Notes: generated by a model not told the origin, from the letters alone. A stretch of 64,000 nucleotides of DNA from Andreprevotia sp. IGB-42 (GCF_009848685.1 NZ_WXTX01000008.1:124001-188000); one strand, 5' to 3'. Shown: positions 10,315 through 22,011, counted from the first letter of the stretch. Translations and numbers: made by a program.

Positions 10315-10719
10315 GCCTGCGCAGCAACGCATAACGCTGCATAGCGGTGTTTGCTGACGCCACTCTGTTATTCGAAACATGCGCTTCGGAGAATCCCGGG
10401 CGCGTACAGCCCGGTCCTGCATATCGCCATGAATCCGGCTGCAACAGCGGTTTCCCTCGTTCCTGCCTGCTGACTTACCCCGCATAGCCCTCCCGCTGGC
10501 CTTGGTGTTGCTTAGTGCTGCCCGTTTTTTTCATCTATAAACAGGAAAGAAAAAGACATTGTTGTCTTGGTTGATTCTTTCTTGATTTAACTGTTCGTTG
10601 AAAACATGCGGATGCAGCCATGGGATGTGCCGCGAACGGCACGGGTGCGGCGCTGCGTGGCAGCGGTCACCAGAGCGCGGCATACCCGGCGCGGACGCGT
10701 ATTGCAGTGAGGAGGTGCA
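10315..10719. other. Intergenic control region upstream of the LOV-GGDEF-EAL gene
   Basis: No gene is supported in these 405 bp. An in-frame ATG-to-TGA stretch of 34 codons (10606-10710) ends just before the next gene's SD but has no SD of its own. A TATAAA box (10536-10541) with TTAGTG 18 bp upstream (10512-10517) is the best promoter candidate. The first half is GC-rich and unremarkable. Confidence 0.4.
10512..10541 (+). promoter_or_regulatory. Possible sigma-70 promoter of the LOV-GGDEF-EAL gene
   Basis: The boxes are TTAGTG at 10512-10517 and TATAAA at 10536-10541, separated by 18 bp. The -35 match is weak. The leader to the start codon would be about 170 nt. Confidence 0.3.
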
Positions 10720-13700
10720 ATGCTGCATGGCGTGGAAGTACTGATCGTTGAAGATAGCCCCACGCAGGCAACGCTGTTGAGCGGCCTGCTGGAAACGCAT
10801 GGTTGCGTGGTACGCACGGCCAACAACGGCTTGGTGGCGCTGGATCTGGTGGCCGAGCGCCGCCCCACGCTGATCATCAGCGATGTGGTGATGCCGCGCA
10901 TGGACGGCTACGAGCTATGCCGCCACCTCAAGCTCGACCCGGCATCGCAGGGCATTCCCATCCTGCTGGTCACCAGCCTGTCCGACGCGCGCGACGTGGT
11001 GCGCGGCCTGGCCTGTGGCGCGGATGGCTTCATCCTCAAGCCCTACGAAGAAAAATACCTGATCGCGCGCGTGCGTTACTTTCTGGCCAACCAGGAGGTA
11101 CGCCATAACGATGCCGCCAACCGGGGCGTGGAAGTGGTGCTGGGGGGCGAGCGCCACCTGATCACCGCGCACCGCCAGCAAATCCTGGACTTGCTCATTT
11201 CCACCTATGAGCAGGGCATACAGCTCAACAGCCAGTTGCGCACCAAGCACAGCGAGCTGATGCAGTCGTACTCGCTGCTCGACAGCCTGTTCCATTTTTC
11301 CACCAGCCTGACCGACAAGCAGAACGAACATGAAGTGATCGAGAAAGCGCTGGCCACCCTGATCCGCTTTCCGCACCTGCGCAGCGGCTGGGCGCTGCTC
11401 TCGGAAGAAAATGCGCTGCCCGGCGAATACCGGCTGGCCGGTATCTGCGGTGATCTGGCCGAAAGCACGCTGCAGAAGCTGCAGCAGCCCGATTGCCCGT
11501 GCGGGCACGTGCAGCCCAATGACGATGCCCATTCCGCATTCAATGTGACCAGCTGTGAGGTATTGCCGGGGGATCAGCAGCACGCATGCGTGCCGATTCG
11601 TGTCGGCAACGACATCCTGGGTTTTCTCAATGTGGTGCGCGATGACGCTGGCGCGTGGCAGGATGCAGAGCTGGAAGCGCTGACCACGCTGGGGCAGCAA
11701 TTTGCCACCAGCCTGGCGCGCGTGCGCTTTTTCAAGCGGCTGGATAACCTCGTCAACGAGCGTACTGCTGCATTGCGTATCGAAGTTGCCGAGCGCGAGC
11801 GTGCCGAGGTGGCATTGCGCCACAGCGAGGCGCTGATCGGCCAGGTGCTCAATACCCTGCCGGTGGGCATCTGGGTGACCGATGCACGCGGTGGGCTGAT
11901 GCTGCACAACCCGGAGGCCGTACGGATCTGGGGCGGCAGCATTCCCCAGCTGGAGGTCGACAAGACGGTAACGCCCCCTCAGGTGGAAGCAGGCGATGCG
12001 CTGTCGGCGCTGCGCTATGCATTGCATTCGGCGCTGACGGTGGGCAAAACCACGCTGCACGAAACGTTGCAGGTGGTGGCACTGGATGGCGAGGCACGCA
12101 AGGTGCTGAGTTCGGTAGTGCCGCTTACCGATGAGCGCCAGCATATCCAGGGCGCCATCCTGGTGATGCAGGATGTGACCGCGCAGCAGGTGGTGGACCT
12201 GGAGCTGCGGCTGCGCGAGCGGGCGATCGCAGCCAGCGTCAGCGCGATTGCCATTACCGATAACCTCGATCCGCAGCAGCCGCTGATCTACGTGAACCAG
12301 GCGTTCGAGCGCATCACCGGCTACACGCGGGATCAGGTGCTGGGGCGCAATTGTCGCTTCCTGCAAGGCGATGATCATGATCAGCCAGGCTTGCTGGCAA
12401 TCCGGCGGGCTGTTGCACAGGGCATCGAGGGCAAAGCGGTGCTGCGCAACTACCGGCGCGATGGTTCCATGTTCTGGAACGACCTGCGCGTGGCGCCATC
12501 GTTCGATGGTGAAGGCAATGTCAGCCACTTTGTCGGCGTACTCAGCGATATATCCGATATCAAGCGCTACCAGGATGAACTCGAGCATCAGAACAACTTC
12601 GATACGCTGACCGCATTGCCCAACCGCACGCTGCTGCTCGATCGCATCCAGCAGGCGGCCGTGCAGGCCAACCGCAAGCACGAGCAGTTTGCGGTGGCCT
12701 TCCTCGATCTGGATAACTTCAAGTACGTGAACGATAGCCTGGGCCACTCGGTGGGGGACCGGCTGCTGGTGGAAGTGGCCAACCGCATCCAGACCTGTGT
12801 GCGTGAATTCGATACTGTTGCCCGCCTGGGGGGCGACGAATTCGTGCTGCTGCTGCCCGAGGCGCAGCGCACCGAAGATGTGGAAGGCGTATTGCAGCGC
12901 ATCCGCCAGAGCCTGGCGGAGCCGGTCGAGCTGGCGGGCGACGTCAAGGTGTATGCCAGCGCCAGCGTGGGCTACTGCTTCTACCCGGGTGATGGCGAAA
13001 AGGCCGAAGACCTGCTGCGCAACGCAGATACCGCGATGTACCGGGCCAAGGAGCAGGGCAAGAGCCAGGCTAGCCGCTTCGAATTGCCGATGAACGAATC
13101 GATCCAGCGGCGCGTGGCGCTGGAGCGCGACCTGCGCCATGCCATTGCCAATGCCGAGCTGGAAATGTACTACCAGCCGCAACTGGAGCTGTCGTCGTCC
13201 ACGCTATGCGGCTTCGAGGCGCTGATCCGCTGGTCGGTCAACGGCCAATTCATTCCCACCATCGAGTTCATCCGCGTGGCGGAGGAAACTGGGCTGATCA
13301 AGGAGCTCGATTACTACGTGATCGAGACCGTGATGCGCCAGGTGGCCACGTGGCTGCAGGCCGGGTACGACCCGGGCGAGGTGGCGATCAATGTATCGGC
13401 GCTCAGCATGCAGGACCCGGCCATCGTCGAGTTCGTGACCGGTGCGCTGGCCCGCCACGCCATTCCGGAAGGCCGCATCAAGCTCGAAGTGACCGAAGGC
13501 CTGCTGATGAAGAATGTCGACGTGGCGCTGAAGATCATGCAGGACCTGAAAACGGCCGGCATACGCTGGTCCATTGATGATTTCGGCACCGGTTATTCGG
13601 CGCTCAGCTACCTGCGCCGCTATCCGTTCAGCCAGCTCAAGATCGACAAGAGCTTCATCGATGATGTGCATCTGAACGTCGAAAACGCGTCGATGACGCG

Positions 13701-14295
13701 CGCCACCATCAGCATGGCGCATTCGCTGGGCATCAGCGTGGTGGCCGAGGGCGTCGAAACCGTCGAGCAACTGAGCTTCCTGCTGCAGGCCGGGTGCGAG
13801 CAGATACAGGGCTATTATTATTCGCCGCCGCTGCCGGTCAGCAGCTGCGCGCAACTGCTGGCGCATGATGGCAGCCTGCAATTGCCCAAGGTGGTACTCA
13901 ACCGCAATCCGCGTACGCTGCTGGTGCTCGATACCGATCTGCGCGTGCATTCCTACCTGTTCCGTGATCTGAGCGAGCAGGGCTACCACATCCTCAATGT
14001 GGACAGCACCGAGGCGGCGCTCAATGTGCTCGCCATCAACGAAGTGGGCGTGATCATGGTGGACCCCAGCCAGCGCAGCAGCGCGGATGCGGACCTGCTC
14101 AGCCGCCTGAAGCGGCTGCACCCGAACGTGGTACGCGTGGCGATGAGCAGCTATATCGATGTGGAAACGGTATTGCAGGCGATCAACGAGGGGGCCGTCT
14201 TCCGTTACCTGACCAAGCCATGGCAACCCGAGCAGCTCAAACACCAGCTCAGGGATGCGTTCCGCCAGTTCGATCTGCAACTGCAGACAGGCTGA
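10720..14295 (+). CDS. Multidomain c-di-GMP enzyme: REC-GAF-PAS-LOV-GGDEF-EAL-REC
   Basis: This 1191-residue cytoplasmic signalling protein has a strong SD (GGAGGT, 5 bases before ATG). Residues 1-120 are a receiver with phosphoacceptor Asp55 (SDVVMPRMDG). Residues 195-345 are a GAF domain with Cys259, Cys261, Cys279 and Cys290. A coiled segment and a PAS domain (about 375-495) follow. Residues 505-620 carry the LOV flavin signature GRNCRFLQG with candidate photoactive Cys545, plus Asn577 and Asn587 (NYRRDGSMFWN). The GGDEF motif is intact at 704-708 with the inhibitory RxxD site REFD just upstream. The EAL domain is intact (E833AL, EVTEG, DDFGTG at 953-954, AEGVET), so both synthesis and breakdown of c-di-GMP look possible. 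Residues 1063-1190 are a second receiver with probable Asp1115. No transmembrane segment is seen. It is convergent with the MSHA pilus locus. Confidence 0.93.
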   Translation: MLHGVEVLIVEDSPTQATLLSGLLETHGCVVRTANNGLVALDLVAERRPTLIISDVVMPRMDGYELCRHLKLDPASQGIPILLVTSLSDARDVVRGLACGADGFILKPYEEKYLIARVRYFLANQEVRHNDAANRGVEVVLGGERHLITAHRQQILDLLISTYEQGIQLNSQLRTKHSELMQSYSLLDSLFHFSTSLTDKQNEHEVIEKALATLIRFPHLRSGWALLSEENALPGEYRLAGICGDLAESTLQKLQQPDCPCGHVQPNDDAHSAFNVTSCEVLPGDQQHACVPIRVGNDILGFLNVVRDDAGAWQDAELEALTTLGQQFATSLARVRFFKRLDNLVNERTAALRIEVAERERAEVALRHSEALIGQVLNTLPVGIWVTDARGGLMLHNPEAVRIWGGSIPQLEVDKTVTPPQVEAGDALSALRYALHSALTVGKTTLHETLQVVALDGEARKVLSSVVPLTDERQHIQGAILVMQDVTAQQVVDLELRLRERAIAASVSAIAITDNLDPQQPLIYVNQAFERITGYTRDQVLGRNCRFLQGDDHDQPGLLAIRRAVAQGIEGKAVLRNYRRDGSMFWNDLRVAPSFDGEGNVSHFVGVLSDISDIKRYQDELEHQNNFDTLTALPNRTLLLDRIQQAAVQANRKHEQFAVAFLDLDNFKYVNDSLGHSVGDRLLVEVANRIQTCVREFDTVARLGGDEFVLLLPEAQRTEDVEGVLQRIRQSLAEPVELAGDVKVYASASVGYCFYPGDGEKAEDLLRNADTAMYRAKEQGKSQASRFELPMNESIQRRVALERDLRHAIANAELEMYYQPQLELSSSTLCGFEALIRWSVNGQFIPTIEFIRVAEETGLIKELDYYVIETVMRQVATWLQAGYDPGEVAINVSALSMQDPAIVEFVTGALARHAIPEGRIKLEVTEGLLMKNVDVALKIMQDLKTAGIRWSIDDFGTGYSALSYLRRYPFSQLKIDKSFIDDVHLNVENASMTRATISMAHSLGISVVAEGVETVEQLSFLLQAGCEQIQGYYYSPPLPVSSCAQLLAHDGSLQLPKVVLNRNPRTLLVLDTDLRVHSYLFRDLSEQGYHILNVDSTEAALNVLAINEVGVIMVDPSQRSSADADLLSRLKRLHPNVVRVAMSSYIDVETVLQAINEGAVFRYLTKPWQPEQLKHQLRDAFRQFDLQLQTG

Positions 14296-14443: not shown

Positions 14444-16150
14444 TCAGGGTGCCGGGGCAGGTGCTGGCGCAGCTGGCACCGATATTGACGGCGACAGGGA
14501 CAAGGACAGCGAGTTCGGCCCGGTATCGAAGGTGGATAGCCGCTCGCTCACTTGCTGCAGTGTGCTGCTGTCGTCATCGGCAAACGAGGTCTTGAGCAGG
14601 ATCACCAGTTCCTGCTTGGTGGAGCTGGTGGCATCGTTGCTGAATAGCGCCCCCAGTAGCGGTACCTGGCCGAGGCCCGGCACCTCGTTGCGGTTGCGTG
14701 ATGAGGTGCGGCTCATCAGGCCGCCGATGGCGATCACCTGGCCCAGGCTGGCGCGCACCACGCTATCCGTTTCCTTGATCGAGCTCGACGCCAGCGGCAG
14801 CGTGAAGGTGCCGGCAGCACCCAGATCGATCTGCTTGTTGACGGTACTGACGTCGCTGACCGATGGATGGATGTGCAGGATCACATGGCCTTCGCCGTCG
14901 ATGGTGGGCGTGACATCGAGCGCCACGCCGGAAAAGAACGGCTGCGTGGTGAAAGATGGCGAATAGGTGGTGGTGACGCCATTGCTGGTGTTGTTGGTGG
15001 TTACGCCGGTCACGAAGAATTCATCACGCCCCACCTTGAGGACGGCCTGCTGGTTGTTGAGCGTGGCGATGCGCGGGCTGGACAATACTTCCACCGATCC
15101 CTGGCTGCCCAGAATTTGCAGCATCGCGCTGAAGTCCGTGGTTTGCAACGCCATGGCAAACAGGCCGCTGGCAGTACGGCCCTGTGCACCCGTCAACCCG
15201 CCACCCAGCGCCAATGCCTGCGTGGCGTTCACCGTATCTACGCCGGGAAACTTCAGCGCGTTGCCATTCACCCCCACGCCAAAGCCGAACGGGTGGCCGT
15301 TGATGGCGCCCAGCGCATTCCAGTTGATGCCGCTCTGGAAACCGTCGCTCAACTGCACTTCGAGGATTTTGGCCTCCAGCACCACCTGCCGGATCATGCT
15401 GCCCTGGACGATTCGCATGTAATCCTCCACTGCGCGGATTTCTTCGGGCATCGCGCGGATCAGCAGCACATTGGCATCCGGGTTGACGACCACGCTGCGC
15501 CCCTCACCGGGCGGTACCAGCGTGGCCAGCGATGCGGTAAGGCCTTCCCAGAAATTGTTCTTCTTGCTGGTGCGGATGCGCGTGCTGTTGACGATGGTTT
15601 CGCTGGCGGTACCGGTGCTGGAATTGGCTGCGTTGTTGTCGGTGATCGAGCCGGAAATCACCCGCACTTCCGATTCGCCATTACGTACCGATGTGGGCAC
15701 GTTGATCTGGAAAATGCGCGTGCGCAGGCCGGGCGACAGCACCGTCACGCGGTTACCATCGATGCGGTAGTCGTAACCATACAGATCACGCAATGCCTGC
15801 ATCACCTCGGGTACGCTCACGTTCTTGAGCTGCAGGGTAACGGTACCCTTCAGATCGGGGTGCGCGATCATGTTGTACGGCGTATCGGCCACCATGCCCA
15901 TCAGTACCTGCTGGATGGGGGCGTTGTTGACCACCAGATCGAAGCGCGGCGAGGCGATTTCGCGTGCTGGTGCCGGGCGTGGCGCGGCTTCCACTACCGG
16001 GGCAGGTGGCGGCACAGCAGCGGCGCGGCTGGCTGCGGCCGCAGTGGCTTCTGCCACGGCCTGGCGAATTTCGCTGAGATTGGCTTGCCGGTCCGCGGTG
16101 GAAGCGCACCCTGCCAGGCAGAGGGCGGCTAGACTGATGATCTTGTTCAT
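14444..16150 (-). CDS. mshL: MSHA pilus secretin MshL
   Basis: This 568-residue outer-membrane secretin forms the pore for the MSHA pilus. It has a lipoprotein signal (LAALCLAGC, lipidated Cys16), an Ala/Pro-rich spacer, an STN/N-domain near residues 75-140 (IQQVLMGMVADTPYNMIAHP), a secretin N1-like region and the C-terminal secretin domain (LDVTPTID, VPGLGQVPLLGALFS, VILLKTSF). A Pro/Ala tail closes it. Its ATG overlaps the mshK stop (ATGA). In this locus it is the last gene of the transcript, ending at a bidirectional terminator. Confidence 0.92.
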   Translation of the reverse strand: MNKIISLAALCLAGCASTADRQANLSEIRQAVAEATAAAASRAAAVPPPAPVVEAAPRPAPAREIASPRFDLVVNNAPIQQVLMGMVADTPYNMIAHPDLKGTVTLQLKNVSVPEVMQALRDLYGYDYRIDGNRVTVLSPGLRTRIFQINVPTSVRNGESEVRVISGSITDNNAANSSTGTASETIVNSTRIRTSKKNNFWEGLTASLATLVPPGEGRSVVVNPDANVLLIRAMPEEIRAVEDYMRIVQGSMIRQVVLEAKILEVQLSDGFQSGINWNALGAINGHPFGFGVGVNGNALKFPGVDTVNATQALALGGGLTGAQGRTASGLFAMALQTTDFSAMLQILGSQGSVEVLSSPRIATLNNQQAVLKVGRDEFFVTGVTTNNTSNGVTTTYSPSFTTQPFFSGVALDVTPTIDGEGHVILHIHPSVSDVSTVNKQIDLGAAGTFTLPLASSSIKETDSVVRASLGQVIAIGGLMSRTSSRNRNEVPGLGQVPLLGALFSNDATSSTKQELVILLKTSFADDDSSTLQQVSERLSTFDTGPNSLSLSLSPSISVPAAPAPAPAP

Positions 16151-16560
16151 GGCGCGGGTTCCCCGGTTATCGTTGGTCTGGCTCGCGTTGGTTTGCTGGC
16201 CGCTGCTGCGGCACGTTTGATCTTTACCGGCGGGGTGATCGCCAGGTATTCGCGCTGGCCGTCACGCTGCAAGGTGACACCGGCCAGGTCGATGGCGGTT
16301 ACGGTGGCGCCTTCCATGCGGTCACCCACGATCAGCGGGCGGTCGTTGATCCACGCGGTGCGCTGCGTGCCGCGCAGCCTGATAAGCGTCAGCACCAGCG
16401 GTGCGCGCTGCATCGCCGCGCTGCTGGCACTGCTGGCGGGGGCTGCTGCGGCCGGCATGCGCATCGGGTCGGTTTCGGCATGCGCTGCCGGCATGCACGG
16501 CAGGACCAGCGCGAGCAGTACGAGGCGGGCCAGCCACCGGGGCATCACAGATCCAGCCAT
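16147..16560 (-). CDS. mshK: MSHA biogenesis protein MshK (PilP-like)
   Basis: This protein is about 137 residues and secreted or periplasmic; the leader MPRWLARLVLLALVLPCMPAAHA is a signal peptide. The C-terminal part (LTLIRLRGTQRTAWINDRP, VGDRMEGATVTAIDLAGVTL) is the small beta domain of MshK/PilP proteins that links the inner-membrane PilNO-like complex to the secretin. Two starts are possible: ATG 16560 with GAGGA six bases upstream (chosen) and ATG 16545, which overlaps the mshJ stop as TGATG. It ends four bases into mshL. Confidence 0.82.
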   Translation of the reverse strand: MAGSVMPRWLARLVLLALVLPCMPAAHAETDPMRMPAAAAPASSASSAAMQRAPLVLTLIRLRGTQRTAWINDRPLIVGDRMEGATVTAIDLAGVTLQRDGQREYLAITPPVKIKRAAAAASKPTRARPTITGEPAP

Positions 16561-17189
16561 TGTTCGTCCTCGCTCAGTGAGGAAAACGTCAGCGTGGCGC
16601 GCGCGGGGCCGCGCCCGTCGCTGTCGAGGCGGATTTCCTGCCAGAAGATCGGCCAGTCGCTCTGCTCCAGCGCACGCAGGTAGTTGCGTACCACGAAGTA
16701 ATCCCCCTGCAGCGTCATTCGCTGGCTGTGCTGCCACAGCGCATTCTGTTCGTTGGCCAGCGGGTCCAGCTTGGCAGGGGGCAGCGTTTCCATGCTGACC
16801 AGCGTCAGCTTGGGTTCTGCACTGATCAGGCCCCGCAGCATTTCGGCAGTCTTGTAGGGCGGAATGAACTTCTTGCGCAGCTCGGCAAGCTCCGCAGTGC
16901 GCGCGGCGATGTCGCTCTCCATTTTCCGGATGTCGGCTTTCACCAGCCCGCTTTGCATGTCGATCTCCAGGCTGCGCAGGTTGTCGTAATAGATGAGTTC
17001 CTCGCTGACCCCACCCAGTGCCTTCTGCAAGCGGGCCCGCTCTTTCTGCACCGGCCGCAGCAACAGGTTGTCGCCCAGCAGCACCAGCACCATCACCGCA
17101 ACGCCCAGCATCAGCAGCCGCTGGCGCATGGTCTGCGCGTCGATGTAGTAGCTGAGCTTGGCCCATTGCGTGCGCAGGAAGGGCGTCAT
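16545..17189 (-). CDS. mshJ: MSHA biogenesis protein MshJ (PilO-like)
   Basis: This 214-residue bitopic inner-membrane protein has a short cytoplasmic N-terminus (LSYYIDAQTMRQRLLML), one transmembrane helix near residues 24-41, a coiled coil (residues 45-100) and a ferredoxin-like periplasmic domain. This is the PilO layout. It forms the alignment complex with the PilM-like MshI and the PilN-like neighbour. Its ATG overlaps the previous stop (TGATG), and the next gene overlaps its own stop. A GTG three bases upstream is an alternative. Confidence 0.88.
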   Translation of the reverse strand: MTPFLRTQWAKLSYYIDAQTMRQRLLMLGVAVMVLVLLGDNLLLRPVQKERARLQKALGGVSEELIYYDNLRSLEIDMQSGLVKADIRKMESDIAARTAELAELRKKFIPPYKTAEMLRGLISAEPKLTLVSMETLPPAKLDPLANEQNALWQHSQRMTLQGDYFVVRNYLRALEQSDWPIFWQEIRLDSDGRGPARATLTFSSLSEDEQWLDL

Positions 17190-17785
17190 CACTTCTTCTC
17201 CTTGCCAGGGCCGCTATCGACGTTCTGCAGCTCGAAGCGGATGGCATTGCTGCCAGCCACGCTGCCCAGTTGCAAGGCGCCGAATTGCTGGCCGGTGAAC
17301 ACGCGTTGCTGCTTGAGAGCGTCCAGATAGGCTGGGATCAGCGGTGCCGACAGCGCCTGGCCTTCCAGCGACAGTTTGTCGGCCTTGATATCGATGACGG
17401 TCAGCCACACGCCGCTGATCTGTGCGCCGGCAAAACCATCCAGATAGGCGGAAAACGATCGGGAGCTCGACTGGAACTTGCTCATGGTCATCTGCCGTTC
17501 GAGCAGCGTCTTGTTGACCTCGGCAAGGTGGTTGGCCACTTGCTGGTTTTCCGCCGTTTCACCGGTCTTGCCGCTTTCGGCATTGCGGTTGGCGGCAAGC
17601 TTGGCCTTGCTCTCTTCGAGCACCTGCAGTTGCTGCGTCAGCCGGTAGACCTGGTAACGTGCAGTGCCCCACGCCAGCAGGCCCGATACGGTCAGTATCG
17701 CCAGTGTCAGGCCGATGAAGTTCGCGCCGAAGATCTTGGTCTTCTTGCGGAACAGCGGATTGAACAGGTTGATCTGCTGGGTCAT
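17189..17785 (-). CDS. PilN-like MSHA biogenesis protein (MshI2)
   Basis: This 198-residue bitopic membrane protein begins with MTQQINLFNPLFRKKTKIFG, the conserved cytoplasmic INLxNP motif through which PilN proteins bind PilM. A transmembrane helix (about residues 22-42), a coiled coil with a Glu/Asn/Lys-rich stretch and a PilN-like C-terminal fold follow. In Vibrio msh nomenclature this is MshI2. The ATG overlaps the mshI stop by four bases (ATGA), so it is coupled to it. A longer upstream frame is an overlap artefact of mshI. Confidence 0.87.
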   Translation of the reverse strand: MTQQINLFNPLFRKKTKIFGANFIGLTLAILTVSGLLAWGTARYQVYRLTQQLQVLEESKAKLAANRNAESGKTGETAENQQVANHLAEVNKTLLERQMTMSKFQSSSRSFSAYLDGFAGAQISGVWLTVIDIKADKLSLEGQALSAPLIPAYLDALKQQRVFTGQQFGALQLGSVAGSNAIRFELQNVDSGPGKEKK

Positions 17786-18705
17786 CGCAAGTCGTCCGTC
17801 ACGCGCAGTGCCGCGCCAATCAGCGGCAGCAGCGCCATCTGCTGCACCGGATCGGGCAGCTGTTCTTCCAGTCCGTCGATCAGTGTTGCCGGGTGTGCCA
17901 GTTCGATGGGCAGGTCCAGCGTGCGCTCCAGCCCGGCGACGAGATCCGCGCTGTCCTCGGCCGATAGGATGGCCAGGTGGCTGAGCGACAGTTCGCTGAA
18001 GTGCCGGTCCACATGGTCGAGCGTGCGGACGATTTCGCGCACGGTGCGGTCCACGTAGCTGTCGTGGTCGCTGGCAATGCCATAGCGGCCGCTGCCGGTT
18101 TCCAGGTTGCGCCACATGAAGAGTTCGCCGTGGTGAACCACCAGCAACAGGCCCTGGCCGTTGCCGAACCACACCATGCCCACCGCCTGGCCCGGTTTCT
18201 CCAGCAATGCCGCCACATTGCGCAGCCCCAGTTCGGGGATATCGATCACGTCCAGCGGGATGCTGGCGTCGCGCAGCACCTTGATGCGGGACTGGATCGC
18301 ATCGTTGTTGGCAGCCACCACCATCAGCATGGGCGTGCGTACCACCTCGCGGGAAATGGGGATATCGATCACGTCGATGGTGATGTCATCGATATGCCGG
18401 TCCAGCATGTCCTTGATGCGCCATTTCACTGCGGTGCGCAATTCATCCGGGGCGGCATTGGGGGTGTCGATTTGCAGCAGCCGGTATTGGCCGGGATCAA
18501 GCAGCGTGGTGACTTTATCCTTGCCGGTGCGCAATTGCTGCAGATCTGCGGCATTCAATGTGGAGAAAGCGGTCATCCGCGGCTTTTTGCCCAGCATCGA
18601 TATGCTGAGCGCCGTGTATTCCTGCATACCGAAGCCGATTGCAGTCCAATTCAGATGGCGGCTGCGGCGCTGTATCAATTTCAGCATTCTGTGCAGTATG
18701 GTCAT
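17782..18705 (-). CDS. mshI: MSHA biogenesis protein MshI (PilM-like)
   Basis: This 307-residue cytoplasmic protein has an actin-like/PilM fold. The stretch SISMLGKKPRMTAFSTLN and the central EVVRTPMLMVVAANNDAIQS match MshI proteins. It should bind the INLFNP tail of the next gene product and connect the assembly ATPase to the inner-membrane complex. AGGG lies eight bases before the ATG. It follows mshQ after 25 bp, whereas in Vibrio mshI is upstream of the pilin genes, so the two halves of the locus are swapped here. Confidence 0.85.
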   Translation of the reverse strand: MTILHRMLKLIQRRSRHLNWTAIGFGMQEYTALSISMLGKKPRMTAFSTLNAADLQQLRTGKDKVTTLLDPGQYRLLQIDTPNAAPDELRTAVKWRIKDMLDRHIDDITIDVIDIPISREVVRTPMLMVVAANNDAIQSRIKVLRDASIPLDVIDIPELGLRNVAALLEKPGQAVGMVWFGNGQGLLLVVHHGELFMWRNLETGSGRYGIASDHDSYVDRTVREIVRTLDHVDRHFSELSLSHLAILSAEDSADLVAGLERTLDLPIELAHPATLIDGLEEQLPDPVQQMALLPLIGAALRVTDDLR

Positions 18706-18730
18706 CGTGGCAATCCCTGCGCATGGGCCA

Positions 18731-21565
18731 TCAGTAATTTTCCCTCAGGTAAATCATGGGCTGCCGGCTTGCATACAGGCCGAATGCCGCCCGTGCCCAT
18801 GGCATCAGGCTGGCATTGAAATTACCCGCGGCCAGAATGCCTTTTAGATAGGAAAACCCGTTGGCAGCAAGGTCTATGGTGATGTCCACGCTGCCTTTCA
18901 CCGTGCCTGCCGGGCGCAGTAGCGACAACGCCACCTTGCCCTGGATTGCCCGCGCCGGCGCGGTACCGAAATTGATATGCGATGCGCCCATATTGCCGGC
19001 ATTGAGCCCACCGGTGTAATTGCCAAGGCTGGCTACGCCAATGCCGGATGGCAATACCACCGTGCAATTGTCATCACGGTTTTGCGTAAAGCCGTTATTC
19101 CAGCTTTCCAGTATTGCCGGCACCGGCAAATCGAGCTGATCCGAACCCAGTGCATTGGATAATTTCAATCGGCCATAGCGCAATATGGTGCTGCCCAGAC
19201 TGGCGTGATTGGCGCTGCCACTGCTTTGCGTATCGATATTGAGTGCACTGCTGGCCAGTGCTGTCATGTCACTGTCGCCGGGTGCAGTACCAATATAGCT
19301 GTTCAGGTACGGTCCGTCCGGATTTGCTGCCCGGGCAATTTTCAGTGTGGGGCTCACGTTGGCTACGCCGGAAGACCAGTTGACGGTTTGCGCGGTGACG
19401 GTCAGCCGGCTGTTCAGCGGCTGCACGCTGCCGCCGGCGATATTGGCTGCTGCCAGCCCCAACGAAGTGGTGCTGACCAGCTTGGCAAAGCCCAGCGTGC
19501 TGTCGTAGTTGCGGGTGGTCTGGTTGGCGGCAGCTTGCGCGGTCAGCTGGAACTGTGCGGACAGCGGTTCATCCAGATAGGTAAAGGTGGATGCCGGGCT
19601 GCAGCTCAGGTCGGCCCGGTTGGTCAATGTTGGCGTGCCCATGGCAAAGTGGTGCGGCGCAAAGCGGCCCAGATTGGCCGACGGCGTCTGTACCGAGCCA
19701 TCGCCGCTACCCAGGTCCCCCAGCGTGAAGTAACCCAGGCCGGATGCATTGGCCACGTGCGGCACCAGTTGCATGATGCCCACCTCGTTCCAAACCAGGT
19801 CCGTCAATGTGACGGCGCCACCGCTGAAACCGCTGTTGAGGTAATAGCCGCCGAACTGGCTGCTGCCGCTGGCCGGCAGCACCGCAGGGTTGGTGCCGGC
19901 TGCCGGCGCTACCAGGGTGGATGTCAGCACCACACCTTGCGCCGGGGTTTCCTTGCCGAAATTGGGTGTGGCCTGGCCGGCGAAGTTTTTCGCCGTCACC
20001 GTCATGGTCAGCGCATCGCCAGCGCGGGCGAACAGCGCGGATGAAGGCCCGGTGGGGTTGCTGGGCGGGCTGCTGTTATCGCTGGTGCGCTTGATGTTGC
20101 TCAGCGCCAGCGTATAGGGCTTGGTATAGAAGCTGGCGCTGCCGGTGAGGCTCAATCCCAGGTCCGCAGTGGCGACGCTGCCCACATAGCTCGTGTTCAG
20201 CCCCACTTGGCCCACATCCGGATAATTGAGCTGGATCTGCGCCTGCCCGCTGGCGTTGAAGGTCAGCAGCACGGGCGTGCCGGGGGAAATGCCCAGCAGC
20301 GTATTGGTGGTGGCCGCGCCGTTGGGATTGGCAATCAGCGTAAGCGCCCTGGTGCCGCTGGCCGGGTTGAGATAGCTGCTCCAGAACGACACCGTGCGGG
20401 TGACATTGGCCAGGGCCGGTATGCACTGCTTGCTGGCGGGATCGCTGCCCAACGCAGCCACGGTGATGGTGGCGGAGTTGATGCCCGATACCAGATTGGG
20501 CAGCACATAAGTGGGCGGGTTGAACACCAGCCCCGAGTTGTAGATCTGTATGGTGCAGGTGCCGTTGCCCCCGGTGGGGCAGGTGGTAGCACCCACTGCA
20601 GTGGGATTGGACGACAGCACCGATAAGGTATAGCTACCAGGTATCAGTGGCTGGAATGCATAGGTGCCGGTGCCATTGGAGAGCGTTTGCGACGACGCAC
20701 TGCCCCAGGCGCTGGCAGGGCCGAGCGTGACCGATACCGAGCCGCTGTAGAGGCTGGTGCACGCGGTATCCATGCACGCCTTGACGGTGATGTTCTGCGG
20801 CTGGCAGGTAATGCCGGTGGTGGGCGGGTTCAGCTCGAAGTGATCGATGGTGACGGGCACCACTGCAGGCCTGAGCACCACTTGCTGGGCAACGTTGGCG
20901 GTGACGCTGACCGCCAGCGTGGTGACCGCCGGGCAAGTACCGGCAGCGCCCATGACATTGCCGCCGTTGACGATGGTGACACCCAGCACCGGGTTGGTGG
21001 TGGTGGACGCGTACGGAAACAGCCCCACGCCGATGGTTAGCCCCAGTGCGCCGGTATTGAAGCCGAACAGGCCCACCTGCATGGCGCCGACCGGGCACGA
21101 TGCCACCGCGGGCGCAGTGGCCAGCAGCAAGACGCCCCCCTGACCGCTATGGCCAAAGATCGGGGAGCTGGTGCTGACGCCACGGAAGTTGATCATGCTG
21201 CCCGCCACCCAGGTGGGGATGGACACGCCAAAGCTGTACGACGCGCTTTCGGTGCCGGTGGCCACGCGGTAGTACAGTGCCTGCGTCATGCCGGCGCCGA
21301 GCAGCGTTGCGGTTTCGCTGCGGATCAGTGTCCAGCCCGCTGGCGGCGTAATGGTTTCGCTCGCCTTGGATGCGCTGATCTGCACCAGCAATACATCATT
21401 GGCCAGCGTGCCGGCCGGCACCGCTATCGAGAGCGAGGCCGTGGTGCCATTGGCACCGATCGCGGTGGTAGCGGCGACTTCGGTAATGGCCGCCCGCAGC
21501 GGATTGGCCACCAGCAGCAACAATGCCAGCAGCATGCACCGCAACAGGTTTCCGCGTGGGCTCAT
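18731..21565 (-). CDS. mshQ: MshQ-like large secreted pilus-associated protein (DUF6701)
   Basis: This 944-residue exported protein has an N-terminal signal peptide (LLRCMLLALLLLVANPLRA) followed by beta-rich, Ser/Thr/Ala-rich sequence. A cysteine-bearing central region contains CQPQNITVKACMD. The C-terminal half (LSAQFQLTAQAAANQTTRNY, LPVPAILESWNNGFTQNRDD) is the DUF6701 domain found in MshQ. MshQ proteins are encoded with MSHA minor pilins and may be tip adhesins; that role is inference. ATG 21565 overlaps the mshP stop (ATGA). It is somewhat shorter than Vibrio MshQ, from memory. Confidence 0.8.
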   Translation of the reverse strand: MSPRGNLLRCMLLALLLLVANPLRAAITEVAATTAIGANGTTASLSIAVPAGTLANDVLLVQISASKASETITPPAGWTLIRSETATLLGAGMTQALYYRVATGTESASYSFGVSIPTWVAGSMINFRGVSTSSPIFGHSGQGGVLLLATAPAVASCPVGAMQVGLFGFNTGALGLTIGVGLFPYASTTTNPVLGVTIVNGGNVMGAAGTCPAVTTLAVSVTANVAQQVVLRPAVVPVTIDHFELNPPTTGITCQPQNITVKACMDTACTSLYSGSVSVTLGPASAWGSASSQTLSNGTGTYAFQPLIPGSYTLSVLSSNPTAVGATTCPTGGNGTCTIQIYNSGLVFNPPTYVLPNLVSGINSATITVAALGSDPASKQCIPALANVTRTVSFWSSYLNPASGTRALTLIANPNGAATTNTLLGISPGTPVLLTFNASGQAQIQLNYPDVGQVGLNTSYVGSVATADLGLSLTGSASFYTKPYTLALSNIKRTSDNSSPPSNPTGPSSALFARAGDALTMTVTAKNFAGQATPNFGKETPAQGVVLTSTLVAPAAGTNPAVLPASGSSQFGGYYLNSGFSGGAVTLTDLVWNEVGIMQLVPHVANASGLGYFTLGDLGSGDGSVQTPSANLGRFAPHHFAMGTPTLTNRADLSCSPASTFTYLDEPLSAQFQLTAQAAANQTTRNYDSTLGFAKLVSTTSLGLAAANIAGGSVQPLNSRLTVTAQTVNWSSGVANVSPTLKIARAANPDGPYLNSYIGTAPGDSDMTALASSALNIDTQSSGSANHASLGSTILRYGRLKLSNALGSDQLDLPVPAILESWNNGFTQNRDDNCTVVLPSGIGVASLGNYTGGLNAGNMGASHINFGTAPARAIQGKVALSLLRPAGTVKGSVDITIDLAANGFSYLKGILAAGNFNASLMPWARAAFGLYASRQPMIYLRENY

Positions 21566-22011
21566 GCGCAGGCCCCCCCGCTGGTGTCGAGGCATTTGGC
21601 CACCGTGGCGGAAATCTGCCTTTCCACATAGTTGGGGCTGCGCTGTGCCGGGCCGCAGGTGGCGGTGATGCCCAGATTGCACGCGGTGGCAGTCAGCTGG
21701 TACACGGTGATGGTATTGCCGGCCTGGTTATGCGTGCTGCGTGTGCATTGCACATTGATCACGAAGTCGGCCAGCAACCCGCCCACGCTGATGCTGGCGC
21801 TGGTGCAGCTATCGCTGGTCAGCGCCTGGAAGGCCGCGTATTCGATGCCGGCCCGTGCCGCCTGGTAGGCGCGGCTACCCTGGAAATCGAGCGTGGCGCT
21901 TTGCTGCGATGTGGTCGACAACGTCATCACGAAGGCACCCAGCGCGCTCAGCACTACCAGCAGGAACAAGGCGCTGATCAGCGCAAAGCCGTTACGGCAC
22001 ATTGCTGACAT
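21562..22011 (-). CDS. mshP: Minor pilin-like protein MshP
   Basis: This 149-residue membrane-anchored pseudopilin has a short leader ending RNG, cleaved before FALISALFLLVVLSALGAF. Position 5 of the mature sequence is Ser rather than Glu, as in GspK/PilX-type subunits that cap the pilus tip. The C-terminal part has paired cysteines (LTATACNLGITATCG) suggesting a disulphide. The start is either ATG 22011 or ATG 22002; both lie inside the end of mshO, so translation is coupled. Confidence 0.85.
   Translation of the reverse strand: MSAMCRNGFALISALFLLVVLSALGAFVMTLSTTSQQSATLDFQGSRAYQAARAGIEYAAFQALTSDSCTSASISVGGLLADFVINVQCTRSTHNQAGNTITVYQLTATACNLGITATCGPAQRSPNYVERQISATVAKCLDTSGGACA

What the first reader, a model, noticed from the sequence alone, without database searches (positions are those of the whole stretch)
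10720..14295. LOV blue-light signature inside a dual-receiver GGDEF-EAL protein
Residues 543-549 read GRNCRFLQ, the flavin-binding motif of LOV photoreceptors with the adduct-forming Cys545, and Asn577 and Asn587 (NYRR, FWN) sit where LOV domains bind the isoalloxazine ring. The domain lies directly before an intact GGDEF (704-708, with RxxD inhibitory site) and an intact EAL (E833). Receivers cap both ends (Asp55, Asp1115). REC-GAF-PAS-LOV-GGDEF-EAL-REC is an uncommon layout and would merge phosphorelay, ligand and light inputs into c-di-GMP.
Basis: partly seen in the sequence, partly recalled or inferred. Interest (0 to 1): 0.82.

Follow-up and report, generated by a model that had tools for sequence, protein, structure and literature searches.

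The report
Glutamine-less LOV c-di-GMP response regulator
This is a bacterial blue-light receptor fused to enzymes that make and break the signal molecule c-di-GMP; its whole family lacks a glutamine long thought essential for passing on the light signal, and in many relatives it is the last gene of a chemotaxis-like (Wsp-like) sensing operon.

Summary
One intact 1191-aa gene encodes REC-GAF-PAS-LOV-GGDEF-EAL-REC, with the LOV motif GRNCRFLQ (542-549), Cys545, Asn577, Asn587, GGDEF 704-708, RxxD 695-698 and EAL E833. Sequence and a predicted fold both match crystallised LOV photoreceptors.

(1) The conserved LOV glutamine (Q513 of AsLOV2, Q123 of YtvA) is Leu608. All 26 family members aligned, from Chitinibacteraceae, Chitinimonas, Pseudogulbenkiania, Pseudomonas, Stutzerimonas, Hahella and Rheinheimera, keep the Cys and both Asn but have Leu, Ile or Val there: a Gln-less LOV lineage. 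Gln-less LOVs are known, and one LOV-GGDEF of this class responds to light (PMC9098866). (2) In 18 of the 26 the gene directly follows cheB in a Wsp-like operon, so the protein looks like its output regulator. In the window the gene stands alone, in a lineage without the operon.

Most likely: a blue-light-modulated, phosphorylation-gated c-di-GMP enzyme. Photochemistry is inferred, not shown; the sign of the response and net DGC or PDE activity cannot be told from sequence. The GAF also holds a conserved Cys-x-Cys/Cys/His set, a possible metal site. This is a new variant of known kinds.

The parts
10720..14295 (+). whole gene, REC-GAF-PAS-LOV-GGDEF-EAL-REC, 1191 aa
   Evidence: 26 family members
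10710..10715 (+). likely ribosome-binding site AGGAGG, 4 bases before ATG
   Evidence: read
10738..11076 (+). REC1 (aa 7-119), E11 D12 D55 K107
   Evidence: Pfam; D55 and K107 in 26/26 family members
11317..11724 (+). GAF (aa 200-335) with C259-x-C261, C279, H288
   Evidence: Pfam; the four residues invariant in 20 aligned members; GAF fold
11827..12168 (+). PAS (aa 370-483), no cofactor signature recognised
12217..12561 (+). LOV domain (aa 500-614)
12343..12366 (+). GRNCRFLQ motif (aa 542-549) with adduct Cys545 (12352-12354)
   Evidence: Cys in 26/26 members
12448..12450 (+). Asn577 (AsLOV2 N482)
12478..12480 (+). Asn587 (AsLOV2 N492)
12541..12543 (+). Leu608 in place of the conserved LOV Gln (AsLOV2 Q513, YtvA Q123)
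12547..12603 (+). LOV-to-GGDEF signalling helix (aa 610-628)
   Evidence: read and alignment
12595..13065 (+). GGDEF (aa 626-782), active site 704-708, inhibitory RxxD 695-698
   Evidence: GGDEF motif intact in 23/26 members
13126..13830 (+). EAL (aa 803-1037), E833 N891 E923 D953 D954 E1010
   Evidence: N891, E923 and EGVE in 26/26, DDFGTGYS in 25/26 members
13909..14274 (+). REC2 (aa 1064-1185), D1115 and K1166 present but Leu1070 at one acidic-pocket position

Best explanation
The gene encodes a cytosolic response regulator that sets c-di-GMP. Its LOV domain binds a flavin and forms the Cys545-flavin adduct in blue light. It belongs to a lineage in which the relay glutamine is replaced by a hydrophobic residue, so the signal most likely leaves the flavin by the Gln-independent route (proposed in the literature to be water-mediated) known from other Gln-less LOVs, and travels down the LOV-GGDEF helix to change GGDEF and/or EAL activity. 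REC1 is the phosphorylation input: in most relatives the protein is the terminal gene and presumed output of a Wsp-like chemosensory operon (CheW-CheR-CheW-MCP-CheA:REC-CheB). Light and the chemosensory signal would thus meet in one enzyme. In Andreprevotia the gene is a stand-alone member, so REC1 must be fed by another kinase or be silent. Shown here: domain identity, active-site residues, the family-wide absence of Gln with Cys retained, and operon context in relatives. Inferred: flavin binding, adduct formation, light control, phosphorylation by the operon's CheA, direction of the response.
For: LOV identity by sequence and fold. Cys, R546, Q549, R562, N577 and N587 aligned without gaps to AsLOV2. 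Cys545, N577 and N587 kept in 26/26 members although pairwise LOV identity falls to 50%, whereas 16 of 35 related LOV-like domains of other layouts in the tree lack the Cys; loss of photochemistry would predict Cys erosion here too. Leu, Ile or Val at 608 in 26/26; these members form one clade (SH-aLRT 100). A natural Gln-less LOV-GGDEF from M. loti was light-responsive, and Leu and Ile are the predominant natural replacements (PMC9098866). Operon: 18 of 26 members have cheB directly upstream, with cheA:REC and, where the flank reaches, the MCP; the complete CheW-CheR-CheW-MCP-CheA-CheB order is seen in five genomes. In L054 the cheB stop and the LOV gene start overlap by 4 bases, and in L048 they lie 3 bases apart.
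Against: No spectroscopic or enzymatic data. Gln loss attenuates signalling in many engineered LOVs (PMC9098866), so light could matter little. The window gene itself has no che operon, and the only full-length CheA:REC of similar kind in its genome (39% identity) belongs to a different cluster with its own REC-GAF-HK output. GGDEF is degenerate in a few members. The 26 members are not independent (some are near-identical) and were ranked by similarity to a Leu-bearing query.
Confidence: 0.62

Rival explanations
1. The LOV domain binds flavin but serves mainly as a redox or oxygen sensor: Cys545 and the flavin report redox state, and loss of Gln marks a move away from light sensing. The GAF Cys/His set would fit a redox sensor.
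For: Gln absent throughout the family; conserved Cys/His set in the GAF; PMC9098866 suggests that LOVs descend from redox-active flavoproteins.
Against: Asn577, Asn587 and the GxNCR(F/L)LQ motif are kept in 26/26, while related domains lack the Cys repeatedly. A natural Gln-less LOV-GGDEF is a working photoreceptor (PMC9098866).
Confidence: 0.17
2. The LOV is photochemically competent but poorly coupled; the protein is in practice a phosphorylation-controlled Wsp-like output regulator and light is a minor or lost input.
For: Operon context in 18 of 26 members; REC1 D55 and K107 invariant; weaker signalling in many Gln-less variants (PMC9098866).
Against: The LOV keeps 31 invariant residues of 115, as dense as REC1 (29 of 116), while GAF (1 of 136) and PAS (9 of 114) drift, so the LOV is under strong constraint; members outside the operon keep it too.
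Confidence: 0.16
3. An ordinary PAS domain with a chance LOV-like motif.
For: Pfam places it in PAS_9, a family that holds LOV and non-LOV domains.
Against: LOV PDB hits at 1e-32, all flavin-contact residues, family-wide conservation.
Confidence: 0.01

Closest known systems
Mesorhizobium loti Gln-less LOV-GGDEF-EAL (WP_140774521.1; PMC9098866)
   Same: LOV lacking the Gln, directly before GGDEF-EAL; its truncated LOV-GGDEF form was blue-light repressed
   Different: Met instead of Leu; described as LOV-GGDEF-EAL, without the GAF and receivers found here; no chemosensory context in the passages read
SL2 of Synechococcus elongatus (LOV-GGDEF-EAL; described in PMC8846402)
   Same: LOV directly before GGDEF-EAL; blue-light-sensitive phosphodiesterase
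   Different: described there as a canonical LOV; no REC, GAF or extra PAS mentioned
WspR and the Wsp (ACF-class) chemosensory system
   Same: response regulator with a c-di-GMP enzyme, last gene after CheW, CheR, CheW, MCP with 4HB_MCP_1, CheA:REC and CheB in relatives
   Different: WspR is REC-GGDEF only; here GAF, PAS, LOV, EAL and a second REC are added; the MCP gene stands after the second cheW; the window copy is not in the operon
LadC LOV-activated diguanylate cyclases (8c05; PMC10396304)
   Same: LOV coupled by a helix to GGDEF; fold match Z 16.7, rmsd 2.2 over 130 residues
   Different: LadC has only LOV-GGDEF

Membership tests
LOV domain photoreceptors | PAS/LOV fold | tested here: met
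LOV domain photoreceptors | adduct-forming Cys in GxNCRFLQ | tested here: met
   C545
LOV domain photoreceptors | flavin-contact Asn pair and Arg/Gln residues | tested here: met
   N577, N587, R546, Q549, R562
LOV domain photoreceptors | relay Gln (AsLOV2 Q513) | tested here: not met
   Leu608; Leu, Ile or Val in 26/26 members. It is therefore filed under the Gln-less LOV subclass, not canonical LOV
Gln-less LOV (PMC9098866) | LOV consensus residues kept, Gln replaced (Leu and Ile predominant) | tested here: met
LOV domain photoreceptors | flavin binding and reversible photoadduct | not testable with these tools
   needs purified protein
GGDEF-EAL c-di-GMP enzyme | GG(D/E)EF and EAL catalytic residues | tested here: met
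GGDEF-EAL c-di-GMP enzyme | measured DGC or PDE activity | not testable with these tools
   needs assay
Wsp-like (ACF) chemosensory output regulator | REC with phospho-Asp and Lys | tested here: met
   D55, K107 in 26/26
Wsp-like (ACF) chemosensory output regulator | encoded in the che-like operon, in relatives | tested here: met
   18 of 26 members
Wsp-like (ACF) chemosensory output regulator | encoded in the che-like operon, in the window | tested here: not met
   neighbours are TetR, MFS and secretin/pilus-type genes; no close orthologue of the operon's CheA:REC in the genome
metal- or Fe-S-binding GAF | bound metal or cluster | not testable with these tools
   only the conserved C259, C261, C279, H288 set

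The most novel reading that the evidence does not exclude
A conserved beta/gammaproteobacterial family in which a Wsp-like chemosensory array, blue light through an ancestrally Gln-less LOV, and a metal- or redox-binding GAF are read as coincident inputs by one c-di-GMP enzyme, with the hydrophobic residue at the Gln site selected for function rather than merely tolerated; stand-alone copies such as the window's have been rewired to other kinases.
Probability: 0.25. Interest if true: 0.75.

Novelty: new variant of a known kind. Interest (0 to 1): 0.55.

Why it matters
The role of the LOV glutamine is a live question: it was held essential, then shown dispensable, with one natural Gln-less LOV-GGDEF tested. 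Here is a family with one shared architecture in which the Gln is missing from every member found while the adduct Cys is always kept, a natural test set for whether hydrophobic replacement is neutral or selected. If the operon link holds, it also joins light to Wsp-like chemosensory control of c-di-GMP in bacteria not known as phototrophs, and gives direct experiments in soil and water strains.

Tried and rejected
Looked for a che operon next to the window gene: absent. Looked for the orthologous CheA:REC elsewhere in the genome: the best is a 39% paralogue in a cluster whose output is REC-GAF-HisKA-HATPase, WspH-like, so not claimed as partner. Considered a bilin-binding (cyanobacteriochrome or phytochrome) GAF: weak PDB sequence hits and shared GAF fold only, and by eye the conserved Cys do not match a bilin Cys motif; not pursued. 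Searched for papers on Fe-S GAF domains and on LOV with Wsp or chemosensory systems: nothing describing this combination was seen in the titles, abstracts and passages read from the open-access library; subscription papers and the list of about 350 proteins in the supplement of PMC9098866 could not be read, so single members may already be listed there. Functional link to the adjacent pilus-type genes (14444-21682): they are not next to the gene in A. lacus or the other relatives checked, so treated as chance neighbourhood. A second NCR-motif match in the genome (C50) is not in a LOV frame.

Full report
OBSERVATION. The ORF at 10720-14295 (+) encodes 1191 aa, with codon-position G+C of 0.68/0.38/0.80 and a clear ribosome-binding site. 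Pfam gives REC 7-119, GAF about 245-332, two PAS matches, GGDEF 626-782, EAL 803-1037 and a second REC.

LOV IDENTITY. Residues 499-632 hit LOV crystal structures first, at 1e-32 to 1e-27. The AlphaFold2 model of 490-640, made with 19 relatives, has modest confidence (mean pLDDT 71.7) but aligns best to LOV structures (Z up to 17.6). AsLOV2 aligns without gaps across the motif and core: C450=C545, N482=N577, N492=N587, R467=R562 (AsLOV2 sequence and numbering from own knowledge).

THE MISSING GLUTAMINE. In the same gap-free alignment, Q513 of AsLOV2 (Q123 of YtvA) falls on Leu608, in FVGVLSD instead of FIGVQLD. This residue is the classical relay from flavin to beta-sheet. PMC9098866 reports that it is generally dispensable though often at reduced strength, lists about 350 natural Gln-less LOVs with Leu and Ile predominant, and shows one, the LOV-GGDEF part of a Mesorhizobium loti LOV-GGDEF-EAL, to be blue-light repressed.

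THE FAMILY. Genome searches and a scan of 84,980 species gave 26 distinct proteins of this family, counting the window's (one, L049, has no C-terminal REC; one, L065, has no recognisable GAF). All keep Cys, Asn and Asn; at 608 they have Leu (24), Ile (1) or Val (1). They form one clade (SH-aLRT 100) against 35 LOV-like GGDEF-EAL proteins of other layouts, which mix Gln and non-Gln and lack the Cys in 16 cases. Hence Gln was probably already absent in the common ancestor of the clade; the tree is unrooted and does not show the direction of change. Sampling was by similarity to a Leu-bearing query and several rows are near-copies, but the search patterns (DGSMFWN and [IV]Y[VA]N[QP]AFE) included neither the Cys nor the Gln site. 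Within the clade the LOV (31 of 115 positions invariant) is as constrained as REC1 (29 of 116), unlike GAF (1 of 136) and PAS (9 of 114).

ORGANISM. The genome (4,706,501 bases, 52 contigs) matches the description of Andreprevotia sp. (ripae) IGB-42, an anthill-soil chitin degrader (PMC7171219: 4.7 Mb, 52 contigs); the nearest relative is A. lacus. The identification is by inference. The family is absent from most genomes: 10 of 399 in the order pass the threshold, three of them by the C-terminal part alone, and none of 369 across the class except the window's own.

CONTEXT. In 18 of 26 members cheB lies directly upstream, preceded by a CheA with a C-terminal REC and, where the flank reaches, by an MCP. 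In five genomes with longer flanks the order is CheW, CheR, CheW, MCP (4HB_MCP_1-HAMP in the copies scanned), CheA:REC, CheB, LOV protein. In L054 the cheB stop and the LOV gene start overlap by 4 bases, and in L048 they lie 3 bases apart. This is the gene content of a Wsp-like, ACF-class chemosensory system, whose mark is multidomain response regulators (PMC3447774). The five Chitinibacteraceae copies, window included, form one group (100/100 support) and all lack the operon; G255 has one copy in the operon (L041) and one outside it (L045). So the window gene most likely descends from an operon-borne regulator and now stands alone, between a TetR gene and convergent secretin/pilus-type genes. 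Its genome has a separate Wsp-like cluster, whose output is REC-GAF-histidine kinase; cross-talk is possible but untested.

OTHER DOMAINS. REC1 keeps E11, D12, D55, K107. REC2 has D1115 and K1166 but Leu1070 at an acidic-pocket position, not acidic in the relatives listed either, and D1115 or K1166 is lost in several; phosphorylation there is doubtful. GGDEF is intact with RxxD, and EAL is intact; both activities are possible. The GAF has C259-x-C261, C279 and H288, invariant in 20 aligned members although GAF identity to the window is only 31-53%: a possible metal or Fe-S site, unproven.

MECHANISM AND VERDICT. Best reading: blue light forms the Cys545 adduct; the signal leaves without glutamine, passes the 19-residue helix to GGDEF-EAL, and is combined with REC1 phosphorylation. 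The domain and residue facts are shown; flavin, light response, kinase and direction of the effect are inferred. It works like a LOV photoreceptor, but by membership it is a Gln-less LOV, since the glutamine test failed. New variant of known kinds, of moderate to good interest because of the family-wide absence of the Gln and the operon link.

Noticed in passing
window 11317-11724 (GAF, C259/C261/C279/H288): Conserved Cys-x-Cys ... Cys ... His set in a poorly conserved GAF across the family; possible zinc or Fe-S site. No paper found that describes it.
   Followed up: partly
L153 5318-14913 (G000:C1 about 451,300-460,900): The same genome holds a separate Wsp-like cluster CheW-CheR-CheW-MCP(CHASE3)-CheA:REC-CheB with a REC-GAF-HisKA-HATPase output, resembling the WspH type.
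   Followed up: partly
window 14444-21682 (-): Secretin, a weak PilM-like protein and a DUF6701 protein in a row, resembling an MSHA-type pilus biogenesis operon, convergent with the LOV gene; not next to the gene in the relatives checked.
   Followed up: partly
G000:C1:373891-374166 (L131): A short BLUF protein (141 aa open frame), a second likely blue-light sensor in this genome.
   Followed up: no
L037 (G013:C1:985072-988596): A fast-evolving second copy in G013 with a degenerate GGDEF (ADDEF), EAL motif residues kept, and Ile at the Gln site.
   Followed up: partly
L074, L082, L086, L088, L044: A related GGDEF-EAL group whose LOV-like domain reads GKNGRFLQ: Cys replaced by Gly while the Gln is kept, the mirror image of the family studied here.
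   Followed up: no
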